This document shows, piece by piece, positions 4,755 to 60,133 of a DNA stretch of 64,000 bases (position 1 is its first letter; every line of letters begins with the position of its first letter). The stretch comes from Lamprocystis purpurea DSM 4197 (GTDB lineage Bacteria > Pseudomonadota > Gammaproteobacteria > Chromatiales > Chromatiaceae): positions 154,846 to 218,845 of the forward strand of contig NZ_KB902362.1 in NCBI RefSeq assembly GCF_000379525.1. The letters run 5' to 3'. The notes under the pieces are model-generated. The model was not told where the DNA came from and made no database searches. It saw nothing but the letters and a program-made list of their open reading frames with translations. Position numbers and translations under genes: made by a program.

Positions 4755-8875
<4,121 letters not shown>

Positions 8876-9047
8876 ACTCGGTGTCGTTCTGCCCCTGGGC
8901 TTAGCTGACGATCAAACTTGATGATCCCATAACGGCCGTTTATAGCACAGCCTGAATGCCGCGGGTTGGTTGCGTGATCTGCCCCGGCACTGGACAATTG
9001 ACGACAGTTCCGCAACACCACAGACACCGCGCCGCACACCGAGAACC

Positions 9048-44719: not shown

Positions 44720-44935
44720 CGGGTGTCACTCCTCTGGGTCGTTAGGTCTGCATCAGCCCCTTGTCACCAGCGGGGTGCTGCGGGGATGATTCAGCGCGGT
44801 TCTTGTTGGCCGCGGATGTTGGCAATGGAAAAGCCCCTGGTCAACAGAAAAAATGCGCCGGGCCGCAGGATCGGCGACGCACCGGCGGGATCTGTTCAGC
44901 GAGGCCTGACGGCAAAAAGAGTAACTAAGAAAATA

Positions 44936-46423
44936 ATGAATCTACGAATTGTTTATCGATTGATTCACTCTGTTCCACACTACGGCATTGCATTTTCAGT
45001 ACTGATGGCGTTGTCGTTGAGTCCCGCAGACGCGGCTAAGGTCGCCCTCGATCCAGGGCAATGGGGACATCCGGCGGGTGAGGCCTGTGTGAGTTGTCAT
45101 CTCAAGGCGTCGAGCGGCCTGGCGGCGCAGTGGCAAGCGAGCGCCCATCAGCGGGCCGGCGTGAATTGCATGGATTGCCATCAGGCGACCGCGGCGGATG
45201 CGGACGCCCGCGAGCACGAGGGTCAAGTGATCGCCACCATCGTCTCACCCAAGGACTGCGGGCGCTGCCATACCCAGGAATTCGTGGAACAACAAGGCTC
45301 GGTCCACGCGGAAGCCTATGCCATCATCAAGGATCGGGTGCCCGCCCTGGCGCAGAACCTGACCGGCGCGGCGGTCCAGGCGGCGGGCTGCGATCAGTGC
45401 CACGGCTCGTTGGTCAAGGTGCGCGGCGACGGTAGCCTGGATCCGGCGACCTGGCCCAACTCGGGGATCGGACGTGTCAACCCCGATGGATCCAAGGGCT
45501 CCTGCTCGGCCTGTCACGGCCGGCACCTGTTCTCCAAGGCTCAGGCGCGCGAACCGGAGGCCTGCGTACGCTGCCACGCGGGTCCGGATTCGCCGGACAA
45601 AGAGATCTTCGAAGCCTCGAAGCACGGGATGCTCTATGCATCCCAACGCGACCGCATGAATCTGGACGCAGCGCAGTGGGTCGCCGGCCGCGACTATACG
45701 GCCGCCCCCACCTGCGTCACCTGCCACATGGGCGCCGCCGGCAAGCTCCCCGCCACCCATGACGTCGGTCTGCGCAATGCCTGGAGCCTCAACAGCCCGG
45801 TTTCGCAACGGCAACTGCTCGTCGTGCTGGAGGATGGCGGCAAGCTCGAGTTACCGGCGAGCGCACCGGTCCCTAAGCGCGGGGCCGAGATCACCAAGGC
45901 CGACGGCACGCTCGGCAAGGTCAAGTCGGTGGGGACGCCGGAGCGCCGCCGTCAGGCGATGTCCATGGTCTGCCAGGAATGCCATGGCAAACCCTTCACC
46001 GACGCCTTCATGAAGCAGTTCGACGCCGTGGTGGACCTGTTCAACGGCAAGTTCGCGGAGCCCGCGCGGGCGATCATGGCCGGACTCTACGCCCAGGGTC
46101 GGCTGACCCCGCTGCCCTTCGACGAGCCGATCGAATTCACCTATTGGGAACTCTGGCACGACGAGGGCGCCCGCGCCCGTCACGGCGCGGCCATGGCCAG
46201 CCCGAACCATACCTGGTGGGAGGGGATGTATCTGGTCGGACGCAACTTCTACAGTCGGTTCCTGCCGCAGGCGCGGGCCGCGGCCGGTGACCGGTCAGCC
46301 GCGTTGGTGGATGCGCAACTGACCGGCGACCATCATCAGTGGCTGACCGATCCAGCCGCAGGCAATCCCATCCTCGGGATCGACATCCCCCTTGGGACCG
46401 ACGCAGTGGAGGCGCCGCGATGA
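44936..46423 (+). CDS. Octaheme cytochrome of the hydroxylamine oxidoreductase (HAO) family
   Basis: 495 residues from the ATG at 44936; the open frame extends far upstream but there covers the divergent cytochrome gene. Signal peptide about 1-34. Eight CxxCH sites start at residues 51, 78, 108, 152, 190, 210, 260 and 346. Family blocks include SKHGMLYASQRDRMNLDAAQWVAGRDYTAAPTCVTCHMG around haems 6-7 (quoted in parts: SKHGMLYASQ, MNLDAAQW, DYTAAPTCVTCHMG) and the C-terminal YWELWHDEGARARHGAAM. Near residue 424, SPNHTWWEG stands where oxidative HAOs have an Asp-Tyr pair whose Tyr crosslinks the catalytic haem, which argues for a reductive (epsilon-type) enzyme. The next gene is a NapC-type quinol dehydrogenase, overlapping by 4 bases. 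Confidence 0.85.
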   Translation: MNLRIVYRLIHSVPHYGIAFSVLMALSLSPADAAKVALDPGQWGHPAGEACVSCHLKASSGLAAQWQASAHQRAGVNCMDCHQATAADADAREHEGQVIATIVSPKDCGRCHTQEFVEQQGSVHAEAYAIIKDRVPALAQNLTGAAVQAAGCDQCHGSLVKVRGDGSLDPATWPNSGIGRVNPDGSKGSCSACHGRHLFSKAQAREPEACVRCHAGPDSPDKEIFEASKHGMLYASQRDRMNLDAAQWVAGRDYTAAPTCVTCHMGAAGKLPATHDVGLRNAWSLNSPVSQRQLLVVLEDGGKLELPASAPVPKRGAEITKADGTLGKVKSVGTPERRRQAMSMVCQECHGKPFTDAFMKQFDAVVDLFNGKFAEPARAIMAGLYAQGRLTPLPFDEPIEFTYWELWHDEGARARHGAAMASPNHTWWEGMYLVGRNFYSRFLPQARAAAGDRSAALVDAQLTGDHHQWLTDPAAGNPILGIDIPLGTDAVEAPR

Positions 46424-47049
46424 GCCGGCTGGGTGTACCGCTCTTCATCACCCGACACGTTCTGATCGCCCTGGTGGTGGGTGGCATCGGCGGTCTGACC
46501 TTTGCGGGATTTCTGCTCGAGTTCGATCGCTTCACCAGCCGCAATGCCTTTTGTACCGCGTGCCACTCCATGACCTACGCCGAGACCGCCTACCAGCGCT
46601 CGTCACACTACAACTCGGCCTCTGGGGTTCGTGCCACCTGTGGCGATTGCCATGTCTCACCCGGCATGTTGGCAGCCACCTGGGATCACCTGATCGGCGG
46701 TAAGGATTTACTCAAACAGTGGTTTGGGCCAGACTATGACGATCCGGTAGTCAACGCCCTGCTGTTACCGGAGGCTGCCTTCGCCGCGCGCGCCTGGTTC
46801 CGCGACCGTGACTCGGCCACCTGCAAGCGCTGTCATACCATGGAGGCAATCCAAGGCAAACGCGCCGATACCGCGGCGATCCATCGGGAAGAGACCGCGG
46901 GCAAGACCTGCATCGACTGCCACTACAACCTGGTTCACCGACCGGTCCCCGACCAAAGCACCTTCAAGCGTGACGCCTGGAATCGCATGATCGAGGAGGA
47001 GTTTGGTCTGGCTCCCGGCATGGCCGGCCAGATGATGGCGGACGACTGA
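46420..47049 (+). CDS. NapC/NirT-type tetraheme quinol dehydrogenase
   Basis: 209 residues. One uncleaved N-terminal membrane helix (about 12-32) anchors a periplasmic tetraheme domain with CxxCH at residues 45 (CTACH), 74 (CGDCH), 135 (CKRCH) and 164 (CIDCH). The TSRNAFCTACHSMTYAETAYQ and CGDCHVSPGML segments are typical of the NapC/NirT/NrfH family, which pass electrons from menaquinol or ubiquinol to periplasmic reductases. The ATGA overlap with the octaheme gene indicates a tight functional pair, comparable to haoC-haoA pairs of epsilonproteobacteria or cycB partners of ammonia oxidisers. Confidence 0.9.
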   Translation: MSRLGVPLFITRHVLIALVVGGIGGLTFAGFLLEFDRFTSRNAFCTACHSMTYAETAYQRSSHYNSASGVRATCGDCHVSPGMLAATWDHLIGGKDLLKQWFGPDYDDPVVNALLLPEAAFAARAWFRDRDSATCKRCHTMEAIQGKRADTAAIHREETAGKTCIDCHYNLVHRPVPDQSTFKRDAWNRMIEEEFGLAPGMAGQMMADD

Positions 47050-47438: not shown

Positions 47439-48017
47439 TCAGGCCAAATCCGCGGCCAACGCCTGCCGCACGGCCGCAACCGCCTGAACTTGGAAGCTGT
47501 AATCCGGATGGTCGATCCCGAGGGCCAGTTCCGCTCCGGCCTTCATGGCCGCCGCCATCGGCGCCGTGAGTTCGAAACGCAGGAAATGGACAGCGGAGGT
47601 CTTGGTCGCGTCGTCCCGCTCCAAGTCCTCATCGGCAATGCCGTGGACGCGTTCGCCGCCGTTCACCTTGACCCAGACCCGATTCTCGATTCCGCGCAGA
47701 CGGGCCAGCGCCGTGTGTCGCTCGCTCGCGTCCTCATACTCGATCATGAAGGTCGCCTTCCAGTTGCTCCCGTCCGGAATCAGCGGGTTGTAGGCGTCCA
47801 ACTCGTCCTGGATGCCGGCGGCCTCAAAGATGCGCTCGGCTCGCAACATCTCCTGGATCTGGTACTGGACGGTCAGCCGATCTTCGAAATACAAGGTCGC
47901 GTGGGCGCCGATCGCCACTTGACGATGCTTCTTATGGGCCATCACCCGGGTGCGGAAGTCCGGACGGATGCGGGCGTAGTGTTCGAGGCTGTAGAGGTCG
48001 TCGCGCTGAAGCGGCAT
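47439..48017 (-). CDS. DUF3501 family protein
   Basis: 192 residues, soluble, acidic. Matches DUF3501: it starts MPLQRDDLYSLEHYARIRPDFR and continues VMAHKKHRQVAIGAHATLYFEDRLTVQYQIQEMLRAERIF, NPLIPDGSNWKATFMIEYED, and a C-terminal VHFLRFELT. The biochemical role is unknown. In many proteobacteria DUF3501 is encoded with a heterodisulfide-reductase-like Fe-S protein and a rubrerythrin; the Fe-S partner is the next gene upstream here, 69 bases away, but no rubrerythrin is present. Confidence 0.88.
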   Translation of the reverse strand: MPLQRDDLYSLEHYARIRPDFRTRVMAHKKHRQVAIGAHATLYFEDRLTVQYQIQEMLRAERIFEAAGIQDELDAYNPLIPDGSNWKATFMIEYEDASERHTALARLRGIENRVWVKVNGGERVHGIADEDLERDDATKTSAVHFLRFELTAPMAAAMKAGAELALGIDHPDYSFQVQAVAAVRQALAADLA

Positions 48018-48086
48018 GTGCGTCTCCGATTGCGGTGACGGCGGTCCCGGCCCGGCGCAGGCGCGGCCGGCTGACCGCCGCTGATT

Positions 48087-49427
48087 TCAGATACCGTAGG
48101 CCAGGCGCAGCAGGCGCAGCGGATGCTGCTGCTGCCCGTCGCGGCCGAGCGCATGGGCGATGTGTGCGCCAGCCATCGGGCAGTCGCTGCCGAAATGATC
48201 GGGAGCCGCCTTGTCCACGCGGTTCGCCACGGGTTTCACGATCTTCATCGCGGCCGCGTAGCTCTCCTTCTTCACTGCATAGGTCCCGTCGTGCCCGGAA
48301 CAGCGCTCGATGATCTCCACGGTTGTCTCCGGTATCAGGGCCAGCACCTCGCGGGTTTTCTGTCCGATGTTCTGCACCCGTTGATGGCAGGACGCCTGAT
48401 AGACGACGCTCCCCAAGGGGTGCGTGAAATCCAGATTCATCTTGCCGTGCTTATGCCGGAGCATCAGATACTCGAAGGGGTCATACATGGCCTCCTTGAC
48501 CGCTTGGATATCCGGGTCGTCCGGGAACATCAGCGGGAGTTCCTGTTTGAACATGAGCACACAGGATGGCACCATCGCCACGATGTCCCAACCCGCATCC
48601 ACCAGCCCTTTGAGCACCGGGATGTTGAACTCCTTGGCGGTCTTGACCGCTTCCAGATCGCCTAATTCCAGCTTGGGCATGCCGCAGCAGCGCTCCTGCC
48701 GTGCCAAGGTGACCGGGATGCCGTTGTGCTCGAAGACCGCGATCAGATCCTCGTTCACCTCGGGCTCGTTATAGTTGCCGTAACAGGTCACGAACAGCGC
48801 CACCTTGCCGGTGGTCGCGCCCACCGGTTCGCCCGCCGCGTCGCGCCCGATCCGCGACCGTTCCGCTTTCCGTAGCGTCTCGCTATGGTACTCCGGCACC
48901 CGCGCATCTTGGTGGACCTCCAGTACCGCCTCCAGCGCCTTGCGGGCCAGTTGGTTCCTGTTGGCGGCATTCACCATCCCGCTGATCACCGGAATGCCGG
49001 CGAGCGTCCCCACGCGGTCCGTACCGGTCAGCACACGGTCGCGGAATTTCACGTTACCGTGTTTGAACTTGAAGGCCTTGGCTCGTAACATCAAGTGAGG
49101 GAAATCCAGGTTCCACGCGTGCGGCGGCACGTACGGACACTTGGTCATATAGCAGAGATCGCAGAGATAGCAGTGGTCCACCACCTTCCAGTAATCCTGC
49201 TTGGCGACTCCGTCGACCTCCAGCGACGCCGAGGAGTCGACCAGATCGAAGAGTGTAGGAAATGACTGACAGAGACTCACGCAGCGTCGACAGCCGTGGC
49301 AAATATCGAACACGCGCTCCAGTTCCCCGAATAAAGGCGAAGGATCGTAGAACATGGGATGCTGCCAGTCGAGGGGCTGCCGTGTCGGAGCCTCAAGACT
49401 GCCTTCGCGGGGGATCTGGGCGGACAT
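48087..49427 (-). CDS. Fe-S oxidoreductase, heterodisulfide-reductase/GlpC-like
   Basis: 446 residues. Two N-terminal [4Fe-4S] motifs, Cys43/46/49/53 (CHGCRRCVSLC) and Cys86/89/92/97 (CYLCDLCYMTKC), are followed by two CCG-type domains (RCCGMPKLELG; SCHQRVQNIG ... CSGHDG). No signal or membrane segment is seen, so it is cytoplasmic or membrane-associated through partners. Proteins of this type pass electrons between donors and a redox protein. Pairing with DUF3501 is a recurrent gene arrangement connected to oxidative-stress or sulfur/nitrogen respiration loci. First gene of the two-gene minus-strand unit. Confidence 0.88.
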   Translation of the reverse strand: MSAQIPREGSLEAPTRQPLDWQHPMFYDPSPLFGELERVFDICHGCRRCVSLCQSFPTLFDLVDSSASLEVDGVAKQDYWKVVDHCYLCDLCYMTKCPYVPPHAWNLDFPHLMLRAKAFKFKHGNVKFRDRVLTGTDRVGTLAGIPVISGMVNAANRNQLARKALEAVLEVHQDARVPEYHSETLRKAERSRIGRDAAGEPVGATTGKVALFVTCYGNYNEPEVNEDLIAVFEHNGIPVTLARQERCCGMPKLELGDLEAVKTAKEFNIPVLKGLVDAGWDIVAMVPSCVLMFKQELPLMFPDDPDIQAVKEAMYDPFEYLMLRHKHGKMNLDFTHPLGSVVYQASCHQRVQNIGQKTREVLALIPETTVEIIERCSGHDGTYAVKKESYAAAMKIVKPVANRVDKAAPDHFGSDCPMAGAHIAHALGRDGQQQHPLRLLRLAYGI

Positions 49428-49772
49428 GGTTGCGGTCTCCTCATCGCTGCCGGGTGTTCACTGCCCGAGGTTCGAGCCTTGACAGAGTGCGCGAGATGCA
49501 TCGACTTTCACAATGGATTGTGCGGATCGAATCGATTGAGACAACCCATCGCGATGCGTGTCGGCACGCCGATCCTTTGACACGGCTAGCCCATGAGTCC
49601 AACCGTCAGTTTTTTTTACACATCCATCATGGCAGCGTCCGATGTTTTTGAAAATTTTATTATAAAACAATAGAGTATGAGAAGATATAGATAGGGCTCG
49701 ATTTTTGCTTATAACCTGGGGGACGCCTCGGTGAGGCTCGTTCGACCGTCGGCATTGTTTGGATATCAAGAA
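49428..49772. other. AT-rich intergenic region
   Basis: 345 bases between the divergent Fe-S oxidoreductase and the exported PEP-CTERM-like protein. Positions 49600-49720 are the most AT-rich stretch in the window, with poly-T and poly-A runs. It holds a candidate promoter (listed separately) and no credible gene. Confidence 0.6.
49648..49676 (+). promoter_or_regulatory. Candidate sigma-70 promoter
   Basis: TTGAAA (49648-49653), 17-base spacer, TAGAGT (49671-49676), in an AT-rich context about 100 bases before the ATG at 49773. Consistent with a housekeeping promoter for the exported protein gene. Confidence 0.4.
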
Positions 49773-50549
49773 ATGCGTACGTTGAAAAAGTTCGTAGTAC
49801 TACTAATCCTGGCTGCCTTCGCGCTGCCGGCGTCTGCTGTCATTGTGCTGAACCCCACCGCGCCGCCTTTGGCGATCACGCCCTTTACACCGAACTTCTA
49901 TCCAAATCCTCCCAGCAACGACCCCCTCCCGATCGGCAATAGTGCCTTCGCGTCCTCGTTGTTCGCCGGACAGGGCTGGCGCTACACCACCGAGAAGGAT
50001 CCCCAAACACTCGCCCCTTGGGAGTTACCCGATGGCACCCCAACCGCGCTGACCGATCTCGCCCTTCTAGGTCAGTTTGGTGTGACGCCGCCGGGATCCC
50101 CCGCCGTGGATGAAACGAAGCTCCAAAATGTGGTCTCATTCGATCCGGGGGCGGGTTTTTTGGACCGGTTTGGCGGTATGGTTGACAACAGTTACCAAGG
50201 TGTGACTTCGATCCTCTTTCTGGAGAACCTCAACGCGTTCTCCCTTCAGGTGCTGGACGCTGGAATCAATGAGTCACAAGTCGATGCCGGCCCGCTTCAT
50301 TTTGCTTTTTACGGGCGACAGGGGAACTTGCTTCAAGAGTTCGATATGACGGCAAGCAATGGCACGCTCAATTTCCTGTCAACCGATATCGACATCGCGG
50401 GCGTACAGATCTGGCATCAGGATCCGCGCGGGCTGGAATTCCGTACACTGCAGTTCGGCGTCGTAGCGACTCCAGAAACACTGGGCTTGATCTTGCTGGG
50501 CTTGGCCGCTTTAAGGCTGGCATCGCGAGCGTCACCCACCGAACCGTAA
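49773..50549 (+). CDS. Exported protein with PEP-CTERM-like C-terminus
   Basis: 258 residues from the ATG at 49773 (MRTLKKFVVLLILAAFALP), which gives a clean signal peptide cleaved after ASA; 14 extra upstream codons are possible but spoil it. The mature part is beta-rich with no recognised domain. The C-terminus ATPETLGLILLGLAALRLAS has the shape of a PEP-CTERM sorting signal (short motif, hydrophobic helix, Arg), but the motif is Thr-Pro-Glu-Thr rather than Pro-Glu-Pro, so exosortase processing is uncertain. It precedes the lasso-peptide cluster by 200 bases; a link is not evident. Confidence 0.7.
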   Translation: MRTLKKFVVLLILAAFALPASAVIVLNPTAPPLAITPFTPNFYPNPPSNDPLPIGNSAFASSLFAGQGWRYTTEKDPQTLAPWELPDGTPTALTDLALLGQFGVTPPGSPAVDETKLQNVVSFDPGAGFLDRFGGMVDNSYQGVTSILFLENLNAFSLQVLDAGINESQVDAGPLHFAFYGRQGNLLQEFDMTASNGTLNFLSTDIDIAGVQIWHQDPRGLEFRTLQFGVVATPETLGLILLGLAALRLASRASPTEP

Positions 50550-50748
50550 CGCGGCGCAAGGGTTTCAGTTGTTGGTACCGTTCATCGCGTCAAGCCTTGG
50601 CCTTGATTATCGCTTATCCGCCCCTGACGGCCCCCCGGTCTAGGTTTCTTGATCAAGGGTCCGGTCGCCCCCGCAGGGCAACCTGCGCGGATTCTGATTG
50701 TGCCGGGCCGTTTCATTTCGTGTTCGCGCCCCGCCCTGAGAAGCGGCC

Positions 50749-52635
50749 GTGACCGGACTGGCGGGAGTCTTTTTCCGCGATGGCCGCTGTGCCAGCCCGG
50801 CGGAACTAAAAGGGCCACTCGCGGCCGTTGTTGCACGCGGCCTTGATCCCCCGACGATTCAGGTCGACGGTCCATGCGGAGTCGGTATTGCCAGTCGGCC
50901 GACCACTCCAGAGGAAGCCCAGTTTCCTCAGCCGGCAATCGACCGCCAATCGGGCGTTCTCGTCGTGCTGGACGGGCGACTGGATGATCCAGAGCGACTC
51001 ACCGGATACCACTGCGAGGCACCCGGCAATAAGATCGACCATTCGGATGCACAGCGCGTACTCCGCGCGTATCTTCATTTGGGAGCAGCATTCGCGGCTA
51101 GGCTGATCGGTGATTACGCGCTGGCCATCTGGGACCCACGCTGCCAGCAACTTATCTGCGTGCGGGACGCGTTGGGCATCCGGCCGCTCTACTACGCAAT
51201 CAGTCGTGATCGTTTTGTCTTCGGGTCCAATGTGCGGTCGGTCCTGTCGTGGCCAGGCGTTCCCAATACCCCTAATCTAGGGATGTTGGGAGAATACCTG
51301 GCGTTCGCTTTTTGTAGTCGTGACGAAACCCTTTACACGGCGGTGCGTCGTCTGCCGCCCGCACATTTGCTCATCATAACTCGATCGCAGGTTTCGATTA
51401 CGCGTTACTGGGATATCGATCCTCACTACCGGATTCGTTACCGCGATCCCGACGATTACACGCAACACTTCCAAACGTTGTTCCGGCAGGCCGTGTCGGA
51501 TCGGCTGCGCGGAGTCGGTCCGGTTGGTGTCTCCCTCAGCGGCGGATTGGATTCATCAGCCGTTGCTGGTGTGGCTCAACAGGTCTTGGATGCCGATGAG
51601 CCGGGCACGCGGTTGCGCGCTTACTCGATGACCTATCCCGGTGAGGATTGTGATGAAACCCCGTTCATTGCGGCCGTCGCGGAGCGTTGGCGTCTGTCCT
51701 CAAGATGCTTCCCTTGGACGTGTTTCGCATCGTATCCGTGGGCTGACCAGGCCGCCGCCTACCGTGACATTCCCGAGTATCCGTCGGACACGCGAACGAC
51801 TCCCCTATATCAGGGGGCGAGCGCCGATGGGGTAAGCGTACTACTGACTGGAGAAGGCGGAGATTACTGGCAAAGCGGTAGCAGCTTACCCCACAGCCAC
51901 CTGTTGGAAGCGCTGGACTTGACCGGACTGATCCGCGAGTTGCGATGCGAGGCCGGGTACACGGGGTATTTGAACGCCCTGCGTTTGCTCGCCGGCGGTT
52001 TCCTGTGGAGGGTGACCCCCGGTCAGCTAAGGCAATGGCTCGAATCCAGGCGTCGTCGTACCCCATCGACATCCGTCCTGTCGCCAAGATTCATTGAGGA
52101 CATCGGCCTGGAGCACAGGCTCCATTGCGGTGACTGCGCCGGGCGGTTCTCGGACGCATCCCAGTGGCAGATCGCGAAGTTCGGGCTCAGCGGTATCGTC
52201 TCGCACTTCTACGAGATGATTGAACGGAGTGCCGCGTATCATGGCATGGAGCTTCGACACCCGTTCCTGGACCGGCGGCTGATCGAATTTTCTGTTGCGA
52301 TCCCCGACCACATCCGCCGTCGTGGCTGCATCAACCGCCACCTGCTGCGTCAAGCGATGGCTGATGTGTATCCGGCGGCAGTGCGTGAGCGGCGGGACAA
52401 GGCCAGCTTCGGTATTGTATCGGCGCGGGCGCTGATGATGAAACAAGTACAGCAGGTGTTGCAGTCACCCAGCCTCCTCGAACGGCCCTGGATCGCGCCA
52501 GACCGCTATCGCAGACTCCTGCGCGAAACGTTCTCTGAAGGGGCGCCCGCCACGCTCTTACCGCCGCGATTGAGGCACTCTTTGTGGATACTGTTCGCAG
52601 TCGAAATCTGGTATCGGGAGGTCTTCGGGACTTGA
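50749..52635 (+). CDS. Lasso peptide macrolactam synthetase (C protein, asparagine-synthetase-like)
   Basis: Adenylates an Asp/Glu side chain of the core peptide and closes the macrolactam ring with its N-terminus. 628 residues from a GTG at 50749. The N-terminal class-II amidotransferase-like domain (GLAGVFFRDGR ... DGRLDDPERL ... RLIGDYALAIWDPRCQQLICVRD) has Thr, not Cys, at position 2, so it cannot use glutamine in the normal way; this fits lasso cyclases. The synthetase domain has the ATP-binding PP-loop SLSGGLDSSAVAGVA, LLTGEGGDYW and MELRHPFLDRRLIEF. Followed 76 bases later by a lasso precursor gene. Confidence 0.88.
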   Translation: MTGLAGVFFRDGRCASPAELKGPLAAVVARGLDPPTIQVDGPCGVGIASRPTTPEEAQFPQPAIDRQSGVLVVLDGRLDDPERLTGYHCEAPGNKIDHSDAQRVLRAYLHLGAAFAARLIGDYALAIWDPRCQQLICVRDALGIRPLYYAISRDRFVFGSNVRSVLSWPGVPNTPNLGMLGEYLAFAFCSRDETLYTAVRRLPPAHLLIITRSQVSITRYWDIDPHYRIRYRDPDDYTQHFQTLFRQAVSDRLRGVGPVGVSLSGGLDSSAVAGVAQQVLDADEPGTRLRAYSMTYPGEDCDETPFIAAVAERWRLSSRCFPWTCFASYPWADQAAAYRDIPEYPSDTRTTPLYQGASADGVSVLLTGEGGDYWQSGSSLPHSHLLEALDLTGLIRELRCEAGYTGYLNALRLLAGGFLWRVTPGQLRQWLESRRRRTPSTSVLSPRFIEDIGLEHRLHCGDCAGRFSDASQWQIAKFGLSGIVSHFYEMIERSAAYHGMELRHPFLDRRLIEFSVAIPDHIRRRGCINRHLLRQAMADVYPAAVRERRDKASFGIVSARALMMKQVQQVLQSPSLLERPWIAPDRYRRLLRETFSEGAPATLLPPRLRHSLWILFAVEIWYREVFGT

Positions 52636-52711
52636 GCGAATCGCCGCGAGCCCGTCGAACAACGCTGTGGTAAACTTGAGGGTATGGGAAATGTCGTCAA
52701 GAGGCAGCTGC

Positions 52712-52894
52712 ATGACCAGCGATCCTGAAACCCCGGCCGAGCAACGTCCGCTCCGCGCAGATCGCCCCGAGGCCGCTCGTCTACCCTACGACCCGGCGCG
52801 TCTTGTCCATCTGGGCTCATTCAGAGAACTGACCAAGGGGGGTGGACTGACTGGTGACGACATTGGCGCACCCTTCGGGACCCGGCCCGGATAG
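52712..52894 (+). CDS. Lasso peptide precursor (A protein)
   Basis: 60 residues from the ATG at 52712 (agagg Shine-Dalgarno); starts at 52691 or GTG 52667 are possible and only lengthen the leader. The leader ends with YDPARLVHLGSFRELTK, which lines up with the proteobacterial leader pattern YxxPxLxxLGxxRxLT except that the Pro is one place early. Thr at position -2 marks the cleavage point, giving the core GGGLTGDDIGAPFGTRPG (18 residues). Gly1 can be joined to Asp8 (8-residue ring) or Asp7 (7-residue ring). Phe13 and Arg16 are the bulky candidates for plugs. There is no Ser, Lys, Cys or Trp in the core. It sits between the cyclase and kinase genes on the same strand. Confidence 0.85.
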   Translation: MTSDPETPAEQRPLRADRPEAARLPYDPARLVHLGSFRELTKGGGLTGDDIGAPFGTRPG

Positions 52895-52914
52895 CAGCCG
52901 AGATCTCGCAGTTC

Positions 52915-53862
52915 TTGTACTTCGGAATCTTCGATTCGATCATCCGGTGTAATCGGGCACTCCCGGAGCTTGCCCAAGCGCCGCCGGACAGTTCACCCAG
53001 CCAGCCGCTGAACATCTGGTTTCGTACCCCCAGATTACTGCCCGCGGCCACTCCCGGCATCAGACTTCAAGCGTGGCTGGATGGCACGGATCGCGTCGCT
53101 CAAGGTCAGCGTGGTGACCTCACCCTGATCCGGGTGCGGGGCTTGGCTGATTTCCTGGTGCGGCCGGCCGCGTGCTCGGTTGAATGTCGGTCGTGCCCGC
53201 AAGCGCCAGCGTCTTCCGTCAGGCACTTTCTCTTGAACCAGGTACTACCGCGCATGATCAGCGTGCGTGATCCGCTGGTCATTCACGCCAGTGCCGTGGC
53301 GACGGATCACGGGGCGCTCGCCCTCATCGGTCCGGCCGGGTGCGGGAAATCCACCCTTGCCGCAAGCTTCGTGCTGAGCGGCGCTGATACACTCATCGCT
53401 GATGACAGCATCCTCGTGCGTCTTGCCGGACCTTCCCCCTGTCTGGTCGGCGCTTACACCCGCTCCCGGCTGCGGCCTGATTCATTCGGCGCCCTGGGGT
53501 TCGATGCACAATCCATTCACGGCGGTATACCTGTCGGGGGAAAGCACGTCCTGGAGTTCGCGCCCGGCCAACGCGTGCCAAGCGCACCGATGGCGATTCG
53601 TGGGCTCTTTCTGCTGCATCAGGCGCCGTCGGACCAGCAGTCCATTGAGGTGTGGCACTTGACGGGGACTGCCGCTGTCATCGCGCTGATTAAGAATAGT
53701 TTCCTCTTAGCGCCCAGCGATCATGACCTACTGCGGCGCCAGTTCGAAGCGGCCACTGCACTGATTCGAACCGGATGCCCCTGCTACGCTTTGACTTATC
53801 CAAAACGTTTTGCTGACCTGCCGCACGTGCGCGATCGAATACTCACCGTACTCGGGCATTAG
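52915..53862 (+). CDS. HprK-related kinase, probable lasso peptide tailoring kinase
   Basis: 315 residues from a TTG at 52915, 20 bases after the precursor stop; no ATG/GTG start keeps the whole N-terminus, so TTG is likely. P-loop HPr-kinase-like core: HASAVATDHGALALIGPAGCGKSTLAAS (Walker A GPAGCGKST) and the DD-containing strand LIADDSILVRL, followed by a GGKHVLEF region. Homologues in paeninodin-type clusters phosphorylate the C-terminal Ser of the precursor. The predicted core here has no Ser, so the target is open: Thr5, Thr15 or a terminal carboxyl. Confidence 0.78.
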   Translation: MYFGIFDSIIRCNRALPELAQAPPDSSPSQPLNIWFRTPRLLPAATPGIRLQAWLDGTDRVAQGQRGDLTLIRVRGLADFLVRPAACSVECRSCPQAPASSVRHFLLNQVLPRMISVRDPLVIHASAVATDHGALALIGPAGCGKSTLAASFVLSGADTLIADDSILVRLAGPSPCLVGAYTRSRLRPDSFGALGFDAQSIHGGIPVGGKHVLEFAPGQRVPSAPMAIRGLFLLHQAPSDQQSIEVWHLTGTAAVIALIKNSFLLAPSDHDLLRRQFEAATALIRTGCPCYALTYPKRFADLPHVRDRILTVLGH

Positions 53863-53897
53863 GCGATTTGCGGAAGAGAACAGCCATCGAGGACTTT

Positions 53898-53919
53898 AGG
53901 CGATTTCCGTCAATCGCCT
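53898..53919. terminator. Possible bidirectional terminator hairpin
   Basis: aggcgatt (53898-53905) and aatcgcct (53912-53919) form an 8-bp stem with a 6-base loop, in the gap between the convergent kinase and B2 genes. Flanked by short T and A runs only, so it is a weak candidate. Confidence 0.35.
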
Positions 53920-53950
53920 TAGGTCCAGCAGGATCTGTGGTCTTGATTCG

Positions 53951-54394
53951 TCAAGGATCCGCACCTGTCGATGGCCCAAGTGGCGGGAATCGGCGCGCGA
54001 TGTCGAGGTCGTCGTTCAGCACTTGGCCGTCATACTCCACCCAGGCGTGGGCCGACAGTCTGGAGCGCACCTGGCGCGCACCCACGCGAACCTGGCTCAC
54101 GATCGCCTCATCGCGTAGCAGGGACCACAGCGTCAGGGAGCGCGTCAGGCAGGCCGGCTTTCGAGGGCTCAAGCGGGAGGCACCTGCTACGGCCCAGACC
54201 CAGTCTGCGACCCGCGCCGTGTCGGCAGCAGAATTGGAATCCGCCGACGCGAGCAGGCTGCGTTCAATGAGCCAGTGCTCCGTGGCGCTGAAGCCGCACC
54301 AGCGCAGACGCAGCCCCACCATAGTCAGCCGCAGCATGGCGCGAGGCAGCATCCAAAGGCGCAGACGCATCGCGTTAATCCGCGTCATCCCCAT
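53951..54394 (-). CDS. Lasso peptide leader peptidase (B2, transglutaminase-like)
   Basis: 147 residues (start at 54394 by the longest frame; ATGs at 54388 and 54370 are alternatives). Matches the McjB C-terminal/B2 family: the catalytic Cys in RKPACLTRSLTLWSLLRDE, His in LSAHAWVEYDGQVLND and the following Asp. It removes the leader after the Thr-x site so that the freed Gly can be cyclised. Overlaps the 3' end of the B1 gene by 20 bases. It is read towards the kinase gene, opposite in direction to the precursor and cyclase. Confidence 0.88.
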   Translation of the reverse strand: MGMTRINAMRLRLWMLPRAMLRLTMVGLRLRWCGFSATEHWLIERSLLASADSNSAADTARVADWVWAVAGASRLSPRKPACLTRSLTLWSLLRDEAIVSQVRVGARQVRSRLSAHAWVEYDGQVLNDDLDIARRFPPLGPSTGADP

Positions 54395-54677
54395 CGGGAG
54401 ACAGCACCTGGATTAGCCCGGAAGAATGCAAGGCATCGACCAGGTTGAGGAGGTCTCGTTCGAGCGGCTCCGGCTCCACGGCGTACTCGCCGAGGATCAA
54501 AGCGTGAATGCCGCGTAGCGTCAGGCCCGCCTGGAGACGCTGCCAGACGAGCGTGCCCAGCGGGTTGAGCCCAAAGTAGGATTCGGTACCAAGATGCAGT
54601 AGAACGCTCTCACCTTGCACCTGTTGGTCGAGGACATCGGGGGCGATACGAATCGGTGAATCCAGCGTCGTCATCAA
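54375..54677 (-). CDS. PqqD-like precursor recognition protein (lasso B1)
   Basis: 100 residues with a GGAG Shine-Dalgarno 8 bases before the ATG at 54677. RRE (PqqD) winged-helix fold: VLDQQVQGESVLLHLGTESYFGLNPLGTLVWQRLQ, then ALILGEYAVEPEPLERDLLNLVDALHSSGLI. In lasso clusters it binds the leader (the YxxPxL region) and presents it to B2. Forms the two-gene minus-strand unit B1-B2, divergent from the nucleotidyltransferase gene by 57 bases. Confidence 0.9.
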   Translation of the reverse strand: MMTTLDSPIRIAPDVLDQQVQGESVLLHLGTESYFGLNPLGTLVWQRLQAGLTLRGIHALILGEYAVEPEPLERDLLNLVDALHSSGLIQVLSPDGDDAD

Positions 54678-54734
54678 CTGACTCCGGAACTGAACATTAG
54701 ACCAAGCGGCAACCTGGCCGCGGATAGATTACGC

Positions 54735-55814
54735 ATGACAGTCAACTCGGTTTCACCTCACCCATCTAGTCAATACCAGAAGTCGTTGCTCGCACCCTGT
54801 CGCGGTGCTGTCGATTTGCCGCAACTCAGGAGCGCGGTGCACGATAACTCGGAACGCTTGCATAAGCAGTTGAGCCTGGATGGGCTTACTCCACTTTGGT
54901 CAGCATGGATCGAGCAAAATGACCTGAGCGGCAGTTTACCCTCGGCATTTCGCTCCCGGCTGAGGCGTGACCGGCAGGATGCCGCAGGACGCTATCTGCT
55001 ACAACGTCAAATGGCGGCTAAAGTCTGCAAGTGTCTCACCGCACACGGTATTCCACACGCAGTCTTCAAGGGGGTGGCGGTGCGCGAACGCCTCTATGCC
55101 GACCCTTGTCTGCGACCAGCCGACGATGTGGATCTGCTGATTCCATCGATATGCCGCGATGCCGCGATCAGCGCCCTGATCGAGGATGGCTTCAGGCTCG
55201 TCAGCGATCGGCGTACCGTCAGTCACCAAGTCAGCCTGAAAAGCGCCCTTGGGGTGGTGGACTTGCATTGGGCCTTATTTCGCCCCGGACGCAGTCGCCT
55301 CGAGCTGGCGCCCTTGTTGCTGCAAACAGCCCATCCACGCGGGATGTTCTCCGTCCTCAGCAGCGATGCCGACCTGTTGGTGATGCTCGTCCATCCCGCC
55401 TTTACCAAGTACGTCAACGGCCGCACATCCAGGTTAATCCGCGTGGTCGATCTTGACCGTACGCTACGCATGACCCGGCCAGATTGGAATTGGATCCTAC
55501 CGCTGATCGGTGCCGCGGGTCTGCGCACCGCTGCCTGGGCGGTGCTCCACTGGCAGCGCTCGTTGATGGACACACCCGTTGATCCGACCGTGCTGCGCTT
55601 CTTGGAGCCGGGCAGGCGTCAGCGCCGCTACCTGGCATCCTGGATCGATCACCGCCTGACCGCCCGGCTCGACATGGTTCCCGGCCTGGTCCAGTGGGCC
55701 TTTACCCTGGCACTGCACGAGCGACCCGCCGATGTACTGCGCGTCGTCATCCAGCTCGGCAAGGCCCGCCTGGAGGCCGGCAGTATTCTGAAACATCTGC
55801 AGCAGATCGCCTAA
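54735..55814 (+). CDS. Nucleotidyltransferase-family protein of the lasso cluster
   Basis: 359 residues, MNT/NTP_transf_5-like. The catalytic region has the DNA-polymerase-beta-type pattern FKGVAVRERLYADPCLRPADDVDLLIP (Gly-x-Ala and the paired Asp in DDVDLL), then ALIEDGFRLVSDRRTVSHQ and VVDLHWALF. Proteins of this type are encoded in lasso clusters next to HprK-like kinases; in pseudomycoidin the homologue decorates the added phosphate with sugar. Here it is convergent with and overlaps (4 bases) the PqiA-like gene. Confidence 0.78.
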   Translation: MTVNSVSPHPSSQYQKSLLAPCRGAVDLPQLRSAVHDNSERLHKQLSLDGLTPLWSAWIEQNDLSGSLPSAFRSRLRRDRQDAAGRYLLQRQMAAKVCKCLTAHGIPHAVFKGVAVRERLYADPCLRPADDVDLLIPSICRDAAISALIEDGFRLVSDRRTVSHQVSLKSALGVVDLHWALFRPGRSRLELAPLLLQTAHPRGMFSVLSSDADLLVMLVHPAFTKYVNGRTSRLIRVVDLDRTLRMTRPDWNWILPLIGAAGLRTAAWAVLHWQRSLMDTPVDPTVLRFLEPGRRQRRYLASWIDHRLTARLDMVPGLVQWAFTLALHERPADVLRVVIQLGKARLEAGSILKHLQQIA

Positions 55815-57160
55815 GTCGAATGCCCTTCGCCGATCCGGTTCTCGATCATGGTCGACAGCAGCAGGCTGGCCAACACGAAGCCCAGAAACAGGAAGAAACC
55901 GGGGGCCAGGGCGGTGCCGTTGGTGGTCAGCACCTCCAGCGCCGCGTTGGCCCGACGCAAACTGCCGAGCTGACTGTCCGCCAGACCATTGAAACCGATA
56001 TAGGCCATGAAAATGGCGATCACCATGACGTCGGCCATCGACCATTTTCCCGACTTGAGCGCAAAAAAGCGCACTGGTCCGGACTGTCGCAGGCCCCGAT
56101 AATCATAATAATACAGGTAGGTCGCGAGCACCTTGAGGGCCGGAAAGATGACGCTGAACGCGACCAGCAGCACCGCCACCAGAATCATGTCCGCGGCCTC
56201 GGTGCGCATCAGGATCGAGACCACATCGAAGACGCTCTTGGTCTGAAAATACAGCACCTGGTTGGTAAAGATCACCGGTTCCCCCAGCACCTGGAGGCTG
56301 AGCTGCGCAATGCGCGCCTCGATCTCGATCATGGGCGTCAGGATGCCCCCGGCGAGCAGGATCAGGGTCGCTCCAGTGAGCAGAAAGAGCCGGAATTGAT
56401 CGAAGCGCGGCGGCGCCGCAACCGCACCGGCCTCGTTCGTCCCTCCCTCCCGATGTCCTCCCGAGCTCAAGCAGACCGCGAACAGCAGGCCAACCAGGGC
56501 GAAGACCCCGAGCAGTTGTTGCAGGACCGGTAGTCGGGCCGACTCGATTCGAGCGCCGAGTTCCCGGTCGCAAGCCGGGACATCCATGCACCCGTGGGCC
56601 GTCAACAGCGCCTGGAGTCGGGACCGGTCGGTCTTGGCGAAGGTGGTATCTGCCGCGTTCTGCAGGAAGGCCACGAGTTGGGCCTTGATCTCCCGTTTTG
56701 CCTCGGGCTTGGAGAGTTCCTCCACCACCAGATCCGCGTACTGCGGCACCTTGCGGCGCAGGTCGTCGAAATCGATCAGCAAGTCCTGCACGCCCTGCTG
56801 CAAGACCCCCTTGAGCTGATCGACCCAGGAGCCGCCGGTCGCCTGGAGATTGCGTCGCCGCAGATAACGTTCCACTTCAACCAGCAAGGTGCTCAGCACC
56901 TGCTCCACTGCCCGCTTGACCTGCGGCCGGTTCTCGTCGGTCAGCTCGAAGGCATTGATCCGGTTTTCCACCACCGTGGACAAGCGGATCACCCATTGAT
57001 CCGCATCCAGCAGACCGTAGCGCACATTGTTGATCTCACCCAGGTCGCTCTTGAGCGCCTTGACCCGGTTCAGATCGGCGATCAGGTGCACCGCAAGCGC
57101 GAGCGCCCCGAAAAACACCAGCAGAGCGAGGGCGCGGCGGACGATGAGGGCAGTGGACAT
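55811..57160 (-). CDS. PqiA-family membrane protein
   Basis: 449 residues from the ATG at 57160; a longer frame adds 41 unrelated residues. An N-terminal membrane helix (about 8-28) is followed by a helical soluble domain (about 30-215). The PqiA-like four-helix domain follows (about 220-449; TPMIEIEARI, VLYFQTKSVFDVVSILM, VFPALKVLATYLYYYD-like segment, MADVMVIAIFMAYIGFNG). Most PqiA proteins have two such domains; here only one is seen, behind a periplasmic domain. PqiABC moves phospholipids between membranes, but pqiB/pqiC are not adjacent. Confidence 0.7.
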   Translation of the reverse strand: MSTALIVRRALALLVFFGALALAVHLIADLNRVKALKSDLGEINNVRYGLLDADQWVIRLSTVVENRINAFELTDENRPQVKRAVEQVLSTLLVEVERYLRRRNLQATGGSWVDQLKGVLQQGVQDLLIDFDDLRRKVPQYADLVVEELSKPEAKREIKAQLVAFLQNAADTTFAKTDRSRLQALLTAHGCMDVPACDRELGARIESARLPVLQQLLGVFALVGLLFAVCLSSGGHREGGTNEAGAVAAPPRFDQFRLFLLTGATLILLAGGILTPMIEIEARIAQLSLQVLGEPVIFTNQVLYFQTKSVFDVVSILMRTEAADMILVAVLLVAFSVIFPALKVLATYLYYYDYRGLRQSGPVRFFALKSGKWSMADVMVIAIFMAYIGFNGLADSQLGSLRRANAALEVLTTNGTALAPGFFLFLGFVLASLLLSTMIENRIGEGHST

Positions 57161-57234
57161 CCTGATGCTCCAACGGGACAAGACAGTGCATTGTAGCCCC
57201 GAAGCGTGTGGGAATTCATAGGCCGCGACGCGTC

Positions 57235-57777
57235 TCAAGCCGTCTGCGGGGGCCGCGGTCCGCTGAAGAGCAGCAGCCCGCAAGCGACCAGCACCAGGCC
57301 GAAACGCACCGTCTCGGCAATGAAATAGGCGCCGTGAACCCGCGCAAAGGTGTCAAGCATCGGCGGCGGCGGGTCGCGGGGGAGAAAGTCCAGTGCACGG
57401 CCGAGGTCGACGACCCGCGGTTCCAAGGCCAGATGAATGATGATCCCCAAGCCCAATCCGAGCGCGAGCAGGGCGAGGGGGAGCCGGCGGGCGCGACCGG
57501 CCAGCGCGAGCGCCAGGGCGATGACGCCGAGGACGATCTGCGTGCGATTCCAGGCGTGAAAAAAGACCCGGTTGAGTTCGGAGGCCTGGACCCACTGCAC
57601 ACTGGCCTTCTTGGCGACCGCATCCCGCGGGTCGAAGCCCGCCGCCTGGGCGAGCTTGGGGTTACGGTCGAACAGGTCCGTCAATCCTGCGAAGTTGTAG
57701 TAAACCACTGCGGTCATGAGCACGGAACCACCGAGCCAGCAGCCGAGGACGAAGGCGAGTAGTGAGTGCAGTTTCAT
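57235..57777 (-). CDS. Four-helix membrane protein, family uncertain
   Basis: 180 residues with about four membrane helices (HSLLAFVLGCWLGGSVLMTAVVYY; TQIVLGVIALALALAG; LPLALLALGLGLGIIIHLAL; AYFIAETVRFGLVLVACGLLLF). The polar loop after helix 1 contains NFAGLTDLFDRNPKLAQAAG, and LDTFARVHGAYF precedes the last helix. It resembles DUF4149-type proteins, but I cannot be sure. Encoded between the PqiA-like gene and pap on the same strand. Confidence 0.65.
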   Translation of the reverse strand: MKLHSLLAFVLGCWLGGSVLMTAVVYYNFAGLTDLFDRNPKLAQAAGFDPRDAVAKKASVQWVQASELNRVFFHAWNRTQIVLGVIALALALAGRARRLPLALLALGLGLGIIIHLALEPRVVDLGRALDFLPRDPPPPMLDTFARVHGAYFIAETVRFGLVLVACGLLLFSGPRPPQTA

Positions 57778-57852
57778 GGGCTTGGGTTTTCGTCATGGGT
57801 CAGCGTTCACTCCGGCATCCGGCCGAGATAACGGCGCAACTTCCGCGAGCAA

Positions 57853-59562
57853 TCAGCCGCTACTTTTCGGCTCTTTCGGCTCCTTCGCCGCTTTCACCGC
57901 CTTGTCCGCCTTCGCGTCCTTATCCGTCTTCGCGTCCTTATCCGTCTTCGCAACCTTATCCGCCTTCGCAGCCTTCTCCCCTCCGTTCGGCTTCGCGGTC
58001 GGCGCCGCACTGTCGATCGGCTCACGCGGTTGCTTGTCGCCGCACGGCACATAGCGGGTGGTCGCGCCGGCTCCGGCGGCGAGCGCCTCCTTCAGGGCCG
58101 CACAGATGGTGCGCATCACCTTGACCCGCGCATAATGTTTGTCGTTCCCCTCGACCAGGGTCCAGTGCGCATGCTCGGTGCTGGTGCGCGCGACCATCTC
58201 GTTGACCGCATCCTTGTAGAGTGGCCATTTTTCCCGGTTGCGCCAGTCCTCGGCCGTAATCTTGTAGCGCTTGTAGGCGACCTGTTCACGGTCCTGGAAG
58301 CGCCGCAGTTGCTCGTCCTGGTCGATGTGCACCCAGAATTTGAGCAGGATGATGCCGCTGCCGACCAGTTGTTCCTCGAACCCGTTGATTTCCGAATAGG
58401 CGCGCCGCCACTCCGCGTCGCTCGCGAAGCCCTCCACCCGCTCTACCAGAACGCGTCCGTACCAGGAACGGTCATAGAGCGTGATATATCCGGCGCGCGG
58501 CACATGACGCCAGAAGCGCCACAGATAGTGGTGCGCCTTTTCCTCATCGGTCGGGGCCGCGACCGGGATGGTCCGGTAGAGCCGGGCGTCGATCGTGCTG
58601 GTGATACGCCGGATGGTCCCGCCCTTGCCGCCTGCGTCGACGCCTTCGAACACCAGCACAGTGGAGCGTTTAGCATTGTAGGCGTGCCAGGCGAGTTCGT
58701 TGATCTCCACCTGGAGATCCTTCATCTGCGCCTTGTACTTCTCATCGGACAGCGACTTGGTGAGATCCAGTTGATCCAGCACGGTGGTGCGGGCGTGCGG
58801 ACCGCTCGGGAGTTCCGGACCGCCCGCGTTGGGGGTCAGATCCTCCGGACCCGGGTCGCTCAGGCGGGTACGGATCGCGTGCAGCAGGGTCTTGCCGACC
58901 GTGAGATCGCGGTAGCGCGGATCCTCGGCCTCCACCAGATACCAGGGCGAGATCCCCCGGTCGGTATGCAGGATGACCCGCTCGGCGACCTGCTCGAAGG
59001 CCTGGTAATGTTCGGAGAACTTCGCCTTTTGAGGCATCATCTTCCAACGGCTGCGATCGTCGCGCGACAGCGCCTGCAGACGCACTTTCTGGTCCTGCTC
59101 GGACATGTGGAACCAGAACTTGACGATCAGCGCCCCGTCCTGGATCAGCATCCGCTCGTAGTCGACGATGCGGTTCAGCTCCGCGTCCAGCTCCGCGTCG
59201 GTGCAGTGCCCCTGGAAGTGATACTCGATGGGGGTCATGTACCAGCCGCCGAACAGGATGGTGATCTCGCCGCGCGGCGGCAGGGTGCGCCAGAAGCGCC
59301 AGTAGCGGGGGCGGGCGCGTTCCTCGTCGGTCTCGTCCCAGAAGGCATGCGTGCGGACGCCGCGGGTGTCCAGCCATTCGTTGAGCCGGTTGACCACCTC
59401 GCCCTTGCCCGCCGCTTCCACGCCGGAGATGAGGATGATCACCGGGATGTCGGTCTGGCGCAGCTCGCGCTGGACCGCCAGCAGTTGGGTGCGCAACGCC
59501 TCCTGCTGCTCCTTGAAGTCGTCTTTGCTGACGGAACGTCCGACCTTGGTGGCTTCGAACAT
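57853..59562 (-). CDS. pap: Polyphosphate:AMP phosphotransferase (two-domain PPK2)
   Basis: Transfers phosphate from polyphosphate to AMP, making ADP. 569 residues with two PPK2 domains. The first (about 1-240) has ILISGVEAAGKGEVVNRLNEWLDTRGV and RPRYWRFWRTLPPRGEITILFGGWY. The second (about 265-510) has VLVFEGVDAGGKGGTIRRITSTIDARLY, HHYLWRFWRHVPRAGYITLYDRSWYGRVLVERVEG. Both have Walker A-like GxxAxGKG. The C-terminal 60 residues are a Lys/Asp/Ala-rich tail of near-repeats (AKTDK, DAKAD, KEPK), written by an 18-base tandem repeat at about 57910-57960. Confidence 0.92.
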   Translation of the reverse strand: MFEATKVGRSVSKDDFKEQQEALRTQLLAVQRELRQTDIPVIILISGVEAAGKGEVVNRLNEWLDTRGVRTHAFWDETDEERARPRYWRFWRTLPPRGEITILFGGWYMTPIEYHFQGHCTDAELDAELNRIVDYERMLIQDGALIVKFWFHMSEQDQKVRLQALSRDDRSRWKMMPQKAKFSEHYQAFEQVAERVILHTDRGISPWYLVEAEDPRYRDLTVGKTLLHAIRTRLSDPGPEDLTPNAGGPELPSGPHARTTVLDQLDLTKSLSDEKYKAQMKDLQVEINELAWHAYNAKRSTVLVFEGVDAGGKGGTIRRITSTIDARLYRTIPVAAPTDEEKAHHYLWRFWRHVPRAGYITLYDRSWYGRVLVERVEGFASDAEWRRAYSEINGFEEQLVGSGIILLKFWVHIDQDEQLRRFQDREQVAYKRYKITAEDWRNREKWPLYKDAVNEMVARTSTEHAHWTLVEGNDKHYARVKVMRTICAALKEALAAGAGATTRYVPCGDKQPREPIDSAAPTAKPNGGEKAAKADKVAKTDKDAKTDKDAKADKAVKAAKEPKEPKSSG

Positions 59563-59740
59563 AGCTTTGCTCTCTTCAGGCTATCGGCAGAGGCCGTGGA
59601 TCAGGGATTGAATCGGCGGCGGCCGGGATGGTTGCGACCGCACCGCGATGATAGCCGGGTACACTACCCTATTGCGTGCCGTTCGTGGTGAACCGCGCGT
59701 CTTTTTCCCGGCCACACCCTGGCAACCCGGAGACCGCCCA

Positions 59741-60133
59741 ATGCCCAGTGCCCCGAGTAAATCCCTGGAGACCTTCGAAAACCCGCAGCCGGAGCGCGAT
59801 TATACAATTCGCATCCGGGTTCCCGAGTTCACCTGCCTTTGCCCCAAGACCGGTCAGCCGGATTTCGCGGAACTCACGCTGGAGTACGTCCCCGATCGGC
59901 TATGCGTGGAACTCAAGGCGCTCAAGCTCTATGTCTGGTCCTACCGCGACGAGGGCGCCTTCCATGAGGCCGTGACCAACCGCATCCTCACCGATCTGGT
60001 CACGGTCACCGCGCCGCGCTTCATGCGGTTGAGTGCGGATTTCAACGTCCGCGGCGGGGTGTACACCACGGTGGTGGCCGAGCACCGCGCCCCCGGTTGG
60101 TCGGCGCCGCCGCCGGTCCAGCTTCCCGGCTGA
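59741..60133 (+). CDS. queF: NADPH-dependent 7-cyano-7-deazaguanine reductase QueF
   Basis: Reduces preQ0 to preQ1 in queuosine tRNA synthesis. 130 residues, the short single-domain type. The ATG at 59741 removes an unrelated upstream stretch. Catalytic Cys in [23 protein letters not shown], and the [27 protein letters not shown] block with [11 protein letters not shown]. No other queuosine gene is adjacent and I see no preQ1 riboswitch upstream. Confidence 0.95.

What the first reader, a model, noticed from the sequence alone, without database searches (positions are those of the whole stretch)
50749..55814. Complete lasso-peptide gene cluster
Six neighbouring genes supply every step for a lasso peptide: cyclase (C), precursor (A), leader-recognition (B1, PqqD-like), leader peptidase (B2), plus an HprK-like kinase and a nucleotidyltransferase. 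Catalytic motifs are intact in each (PP-loop in C, Cys-His in B2, Walker A in the kinase, DD pair in the transferase). The precursor is a 60-residue gene easily missed by automatic annotation. No transporter or isopeptidase gene is next to it. To my knowledge this particular product is not among the characterised lasso peptides.
Basis: partly seen in the sequence, partly recalled or inferred. Interest (0 to 1): 0.85.

Follow-up and report, generated by a model that had tools for sequence, protein, structure and literature searches.

The report
Lasso-peptide cluster with exported partner protein

Summary
Confirmed: 50749-55814 holds an intact lasso-peptide cluster: cyclase C, 60-aa precursor A (core GGGLTGDDIGAPFGTRPG, ring probably Gly1-Asp8), HprK-like kinase K, B2, B1, nucleotidyltransferase N. 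K/N lasso clusters are a known kind.

Two things were missed. (1) The next gene upstream, P (49773-50549), looks like a secreted protein with a degenerate PEP-CTERM tail and is preceded by the two-part Prs/sigma-54 signature of PEP-CTERM genes (20 sites in 3.3 Mb of loci, 0 in three simulated sets). In 210 genomes of the order the P profile finds nine full-length members, all nine at lasso clusters. A second, unrelated PEP-CTERM family sits in four more clusters. Of 18 K-lasso clusters of the order with an identified precursor, a partner is present in 13 of 14 from exosortase-bearing genomes. Outside the order it is rare (1 of 46 and 1 of 20 loci with C and K). (2) K's catalytic motif is intact, but the precursor lacks the C-terminal Ser that studied lasso kinases phosphorylate; K sits in a branch whose precursors mostly lack it. 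Ring residue 5 is a candidate target, unproven.

Best reading: a phospho-/glyco-lasso peptide paired with an exosortase-sorted surface protein. P's function is inferred; a bystander role is not excluded.

The parts
49604..49620 (+). Prs motif 1 (17 nt ending TTTACA), CGTCAGTTTTTTTTACA
   Evidence: published signature of proteobacterial PEP-CTERM genes, PMC1569441 section 7
49694..49709 (+). sigma-54-like site (GG-N10-GC), 73 nt after motif 1 and 63 nt before the ATG of P
   Evidence: alone it is not significant (shuffle p 0.12)
49773..50549 (+). P: predicted secreted protein with degenerate PEP-CTERM-like tail (open frame runs from GTG 49731)
   Evidence: no Pfam or NCBIfam match
50749..52635 (+). 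C: lasso cyclase, asparagine-synthetase-like (GTG start)
   Evidence: PP-loop SLSGGLDSS read from the translation
52712..52894 (+). A: precursor, 60 aa; leader residues 1-42
52838..52891 (+). core GGGLTGDDIGAPFGTRPG (after Thr at -2, Lys at -1); ring probably Gly1-Asp8
   Evidence: D8 inferred from relatives
52915..53862 (+). K: HprK-like lasso kinase (TTG start)
53951..54394 (-). B2: leader peptidase, transglutaminase-like fold
54375..54677 (-). B1: PqqD-like leader-recognition protein
54735..55814 (+). N: nucleotidyltransferase-like protein (PF14907)

Best explanation
A working lasso-peptide cluster of the kinase/nucleotidyltransferase type that carries a dedicated secreted partner. Inferred steps from family knowledge: B1 binds the leader (Y-P-L-G...LT), B2 cuts after Lys42, C closes Gly1 to Asp8 around the tail; K phosphorylates a hydroxyl residue that is not the C-terminal one (Thr5 or Thr15), and N adds a further group (a hexose in the one studied case, pseudomycoidin). 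New here: P, upstream of and co-directional with C-A-K, belongs to the PEP-CTERM/exosortase world by its regulatory signature and relatives, so it should be exported and sorted to the cell surface or matrix. The lasso genes and P are inherited together; in the window the lasso genes C-A-K may be read from the same Prs/sigma-54 promoter. I propose that the peptide acts outside the cell together with P (display, capture or self-recognition). Shown: gene content, P-lasso linkage in this order, the signature, absence of C-terminal Ser. Inferred: export of P, operon, modification sites, and what P does (my odds for a direct lasso-P interaction: about 0.35).
For: Lasso genes. P linkage: nine full-length members of the P profile in 210 genomes, nine of nine at lasso clusters, next best match 31.7 bits against 232.7 or more (the profile was built from these nine). 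P lies in different positions relative to C and K in genera g1, g50 and g60. A second PEP-CTERM family, unrelated by profile search, lies in the clusters L059, L068, L080 (this order) and L236 (another family of the class). 13 of 14 K-lasso clusters with identified precursor in exosortase-bearing genomes have a partner, 0 of 4 in genomes without. Seven of 17 partner genes pass a curated PEP-CTERM cut-off. Composite Prs/sigma-54 signature before 14 of 17 partner genes and, in L087, also before the precursor itself. The window's genome has an EpsH exosortase (E 1.0e-73) and PrsR over its cut-off (683.8 over 502.6). Kinase: H, K, D invariant in 52 of 52, last D in 51.
Against: The window's own P tail matches no PEP-CTERM model and PF07589 finds nothing in this genome. 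Two P relatives (82 bits) lie on short contigs (4.9 and 3.0 kb) without lasso genes, so P is a branch of a wider family. Outside the order partners are rare: 1 of 46 and 1 of 20 loci with C and K. L071 has an exosortase genome and no partner. In L040, L067, L075 P is on the other strand, so no shared promoter. With the stock PEP-CTERM model only 4 of 168 hits in the 50 B2-bearing genomes fall in lasso clusters (0.45 expected). The signature pattern was fixed after looking at these loci. The genomes in the counts are related.
Confidence: 0.65

Rival explanations
1. Ordinary K/N lasso cluster; P is a bystander. PEP-CTERM genes and lasso clusters merely share islands, and shared descent makes the linkage look strong.
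For: In genus g1 the site itself is conserved with its flanks, so five of the nine P cases are one site. P relatives exist away from lasso genes. Partners are rare outside the order.
Against: Nine of nine P members in 210 genomes are at lasso clusters, in three genera and several arrangements; a second, unrelated family is linked as well, once outside the order; PEP-CTERM genes are few (168 by PF07589 in 50 genomes of 213.7 Mb).
Confidence: 0.25
2. Not a lasso cluster but part of an exopolysaccharide/PEP-CTERM locus: C is the XrtA-type amidotransferase and A a chance open frame.
For: C matches TIGR03108 at E 1.7e-48, and a PEP-CTERM-like gene is next to it.
Against: C scores twice as high with the lasso cyclase model; B1, B2 and a precursor with the lasso leader pattern are present and recur together in relatives.
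Confidence: 0.03
3. Lasso cluster in which K and N no longer act on the peptide (kept for another substrate, or in decay).
For: The C-terminal Ser, the only site shown so far for such kinases (PMC9266682, PMC8498205), is missing.
Against: H, K, D, D intact; kinases without a C-terminal-Ser partner form coherent branches spread over several phyla, which decay would not give.
Confidence: 0.07

Closest known systems
Paeninodin-type lasso clusters (PadeK/ThcoK/SyanK)
   Same: Precursor, B1, B2, C and an HprK-like kinase with the H-K-D-D residues (motif from PMC9266682).
   Different: Precursor ends in Gly, not Ser; different kinase branch; no transporter gene; gene P upstream.
Pseudomycoidin cluster (PsmK, PsmN)
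   Same: Kinase plus nucleotidyltransferase beside the lasso genes (PMC9266682 section 5, PMC8498205 passages).
   Different: There the phosphate and hexose sit on a C-terminal Ser, which is absent here; gene order and host phylum differ.
PEP-CTERM/EpsH (exosortase) system with Prs/sigma-54 control
   Same: P has the two-part upstream signature at the published spacing; relatives L033 and L040 pass PEP-CTERM cut-offs; exosortase and PrsR in the genome.
   Different: The window's tail is degenerate; I found no report of a lasso cluster as neighbour.

Membership tests
Lasso-peptide biosynthetic cluster | cyclase C | tested here: met
   best match NF033535, E 2.8e-97, but 326.9 bits is under the model's cut-off of 525
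Lasso-peptide biosynthetic cluster | B1 leader-recognition and B2 peptidase | tested here: met
   PF05402 and NF033537 over cut-off
Lasso-peptide biosynthetic cluster | precursor with Thr at -2 and an Asp/Glu at core 7-9 | tested here: met
   LTK|GGGLTGDD...; recurs in relatives
Lasso-peptide biosynthetic cluster | threaded lariat product | not testable with these tools
   needs mass spectrometry and NMR
Paeninodin-type phosphorylated lasso peptide | HprK-like kinase with H-K-D-D | tested here: met
Paeninodin-type phosphorylated lasso peptide | C-terminal Ser on the precursor | tested here: not met
   core ends in Gly
Pseudomycoidin-type phosphoglycosylated lasso peptide | nucleotidyltransferase-like N | tested here: met
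   PF14907, 115.8 bits over 31.2
PEP-CTERM protein (gene P) | PEP-CTERM tail by curated model | tested here: not met
   no match in the window; relatives L033 and L040 pass
PEP-CTERM protein (gene P) | upstream motif 1 plus sigma-54 site | tested here: met
   49604-49620 and 49694-49709
PEP-CTERM protein (gene P) | exosortase and PrsR in the genome | tested here: met
   PF09721 E 1.0e-73; TIGR02915 683.8 over 502.6
PEP-CTERM protein (gene P) | export and exosortase processing | not testable with these tools
   needs fractionation and mutants

The most novel reading that the evidence does not exclude
[quoted passage not shown] That would be the first lasso peptides tied to the exosortase system.
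Probability: 0.2. Interest if true: 0.8.

Novelty: new variant of a known kind. Interest (0 to 1): 0.6.

Why it matters
What lasso peptides do for the bacteria that make them is mostly unknown. A genetic link to a surface-protein sorting system and its promoter signature gives a place and a condition to look, and a candidate binding partner. A kinase branch whose precursors mostly lack the known target residue points to an unknown modification of lasso peptides that one expression experiment can test.

Tried and rejected
S/T at ring position 5 as kinase target: 12 of 15 partner clusters have Ser/Thr at 5 and Asp/Glu at 8, against 7 of 44 other K clusters (p 1.3e-5, not corrected for descent), but on the kinase tree only 2 to 5 independent pairs remain and show nothing; Ser/Thr 5 as such does not separate precursors without from those with C-terminal Ser (18 of 34 against 7 of 25, p 0.067). 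Kept as a candidate. In L034 residue 5 is the only hydroxyl residue of the core; in L038 it is the C-terminal Ser.

P as a lasso-only family: dropped after L092 and L093. Homology between the two partner families: tested by profile and hhalign, not found. Structure of P: single-sequence AlphaFold model with mean pLDDT 39.2, not used; no PDB chain matched the P profile at E up to 1. P in plasmids: no match at 1e-3; C in plasmids: one record at 1e-30, Halopiger. Sigma-54 sites alone are not significant for the window. Sigma-70-like and terminator-like sites are at chance level. The XrtA amidotransferase reading of C was rejected.

Rows dropped before counts: 8 of 57 B2 places, all under the model's cut-off, were not fetched; of 57 B2 rows in the phylum sample (own genome excluded) 40 were fetched; kinase L107 was too short for the tree, and kinases of L080, L087 and the loci were not in it; loci L044, L051, L076, L116, L122, L130, L135, L144, L155, L174, L179 and L215 had candidate precursors that I left out of the 59 as partial, doubled or atypical. 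Partner labels were set by hand.
Full report
OBSERVATION. The six genes are as described. C, B1, B2 and N are supported by family models; C is below the cut-off of the lasso cyclase model but matches it best by far. K matches no Pfam model at 1e-3 and HprK-related models only weakly. A is a 60-residue frame between C and K; its leader (YDPARLVHLGSFRELTK) and core start recur at the same place in relatives, e.g. L033 (YESPRLSDCGSLRELTN, core GGGHSGADYGVTWANHPDT). By comparison with relatives that have a single acidic residue at 8 (L033, L034) the ring is most likely Gly1-Asp8, with Asp7 the alternative (inference). The window is part of a 6.9-Mb genome, one of eight genomes of its genus in the set.

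A KNOWN KIND. Of 80 loci fetched from named genomes with a C alignment, 46 hold C and K together, in Nitrospira, Acidobacteriota, cyanobacteria, Mesorhizobium, Bacillota and others. B2 occurs in 50 of 210 genomes of the order, 15 of 369 of the class sample, own genome included, and 43 of 369 of the phylum sample. From reviews (PMC9266682, section 5 read; PMC8498205, passages): lasso kinases phosphorylate the C-terminal Ser, and in pseudomycoidin N adds hexoses to that phosphate. The primary papers are not held.

THE KINASE PUZZLE. The window's core ends in Gly. H, K and the first D are present in 52 of 52 kinases compared and the last D in 51. On a kinase tree of 52 rows (quick method, SH-aLRT only) the label 'C-terminal Ser' needs 7 changes against 17.3 for shuffled labels, 0 of 500 as low. 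The window lies in an 8-row set (support 96) with 7 non-Ser precursors, inside a 14-row set (93) with 13; the Bacillota kinases lie in a 25-row set (99) with 18 Ser. So there is a kinase branch, over several phyla, whose precursors mostly lack the known target. Ring residue 5 is a candidate: 12 of 15 partner clusters have Ser/Thr5 with an acid at 8, against 7 of 44 others, but descent explains this as well as function does, and the tree-controlled test has no power.

THE PARTNER. Comparing genes around 60 lasso-related loci of the order gave one further family shared by nine loci: P, in the window at 49773-50549. It has an N-terminal hydrophobic stretch and a C-terminal PEP-CTERM-like tail (TPETLGLILLGLAALRLASRA) that no model recognises in the window, although relatives L033 (PF07589, 22.6 over 20.7) and L040 (TIGR02595, 18.5 over 16) pass. 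A profile of the nine finds, in 210 genomes, these nine at 232.7 bits or more and nothing else above 31.7. In the class sample two more distant relatives (82 bits) lie on short contigs without visible lasso genes. In the window, L033 and L034 P is just upstream of C on the same strand (gaps 199, 66, 18 bases); in L040, L067, L075 it faces K from the other strand; in L037 and L039 it faces the end of C.

A second PEP-CTERM family, not related to P by profile search, is shared by L059, L068, L080 and, from another family of the class, L236. Three of these have nearly the same core, GF[AS]GS[VIL]PDEQG..TKRNPFQG. Of 18 clusters of the order with C, K, B1 or B2 and an identified precursor, 14 are in genomes with an exosortase and 13 of these have a partner (P in nine; L059, L068, L080, L087); L071 does not; 0 of 4 without exosortase have one (Fisher p 0.0016). 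The second contrast is partly trivial, since PEP-CTERM proteins need exosortase. Seven of 17 partner genes pass a curated PEP-CTERM cut-off: L033, L040, L059, L068, L086, L106, L236. With the stock model alone, 4 of 168 hits in the 50 B2-bearing genomes fall in lasso clusters, 0.45 expected if each of 57 places counts as 10 kb. Outside the order partners are rare: 1 of 46 loci with C and K (L106, Desulfocapsa) and 1 of 20 (L236).

THE SWITCH. Haft et al. 2006 (PMC1569441; abstract and section 7 read) report that proteobacterial PEP-CTERM genes follow a 17-nt motif ending in TTTACA, a spacer of about 63 nt (32-92) and a sigma-54 site about 71 nt before the start. The window has CGTCAGTTTTTTTTACA (49604-49620), 73 nt, GGGCTCGATTTTTGCT (49694-49709), 63 nt, then the ATG of P. 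I wrote a composite pattern after seeing these loci, so its form is post hoc; it occurs 20 times in 3.32 Mb and 0 times in three sets simulated with the same dinucleotide make-up. Fourteen sites precede partner genes (14 of 17; missing in L037, L080, L106; in L038 the sigma-54 part lies 246 nt from the start, beyond the published range). One precedes the precursor and kinase of L087 (weaker sigma-54 part). Four are near other PEP-CTERM-like genes (L093, L099, L101, L187), and one, in Metabacillus (L170), looks like chance. Most loci were fetched for lasso or P genes, so these proportions are no test of enrichment. PrsR and EpsH are in the window's genome.

A VARIABLE CASSETTE AT A FIXED SITE. 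In the genus, the gene downstream (PqiA-like) is shared by five loci and PPK2 by four. N is 56 to 63% identical to the window's in L033, L034, L037, L039, while C is 58, 38, 22 and 23% identical, the strand of C relative to K differs, and the cores differ. This suggests exchange of the lasso cassette beside a constant N and flank.

INTERPRETATION. Shown: an intact K/N lasso cluster; linkage to exosortase-type secreted proteins in this order; a PEP-CTERM promoter signature before P; no C-terminal Ser. Inferred: that P is exported, that C-A-K can be read from the P promoter in the window, that K and N modify another residue, and that peptide and P work together outside the cell. I found no paper in the held library that links lasso peptides with PEP-CTERM or exosortase: two papers hold both terms, and there PEP-CTERM and exosortase occur only in a cited title; of the wider searches I saw only the listed titles and abstract starts.

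Noticed in passing
L033, L034, L037, L039 against window 48000-60000: Same chromosomal site in the genus carries different lasso cassettes (C 58, 38, 22, 23% identical; N 56-63%), with C flipped relative to K in two: likely cassette exchange.
   Followed up: partly
L087:5658-5755: Composite Prs/sigma-54-like signature directly before a lasso precursor (core GGGGSALDADNTLSLPGGAAL, leader with Ile at -2) and kinase; a second signature precedes the PEP-CTERM-like gene.
   Followed up: partly
L047 (own genome, contig C129), about 6854-8981: A second kinase-like and N-like gene pair with a weak B1 match, no C or B2 seen: perhaps another HprK-related peptide system.
   Followed up: no
L048 (own genome, contig C25), about 7774-8430: Second Transglut_core3 gene of the genome, without lasso neighbours seen.
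   Followed up: no
L155 and L044: C- and K-like genes with short peptides of another pattern (no Gly in the leader motif, ending in Ser), perhaps a different peptide class.
   Followed up: no
window 43583-47049: Large multi-haem cytochrome and a NapC/NirT-type cytochrome upstream of the cluster.
   Followed up: no
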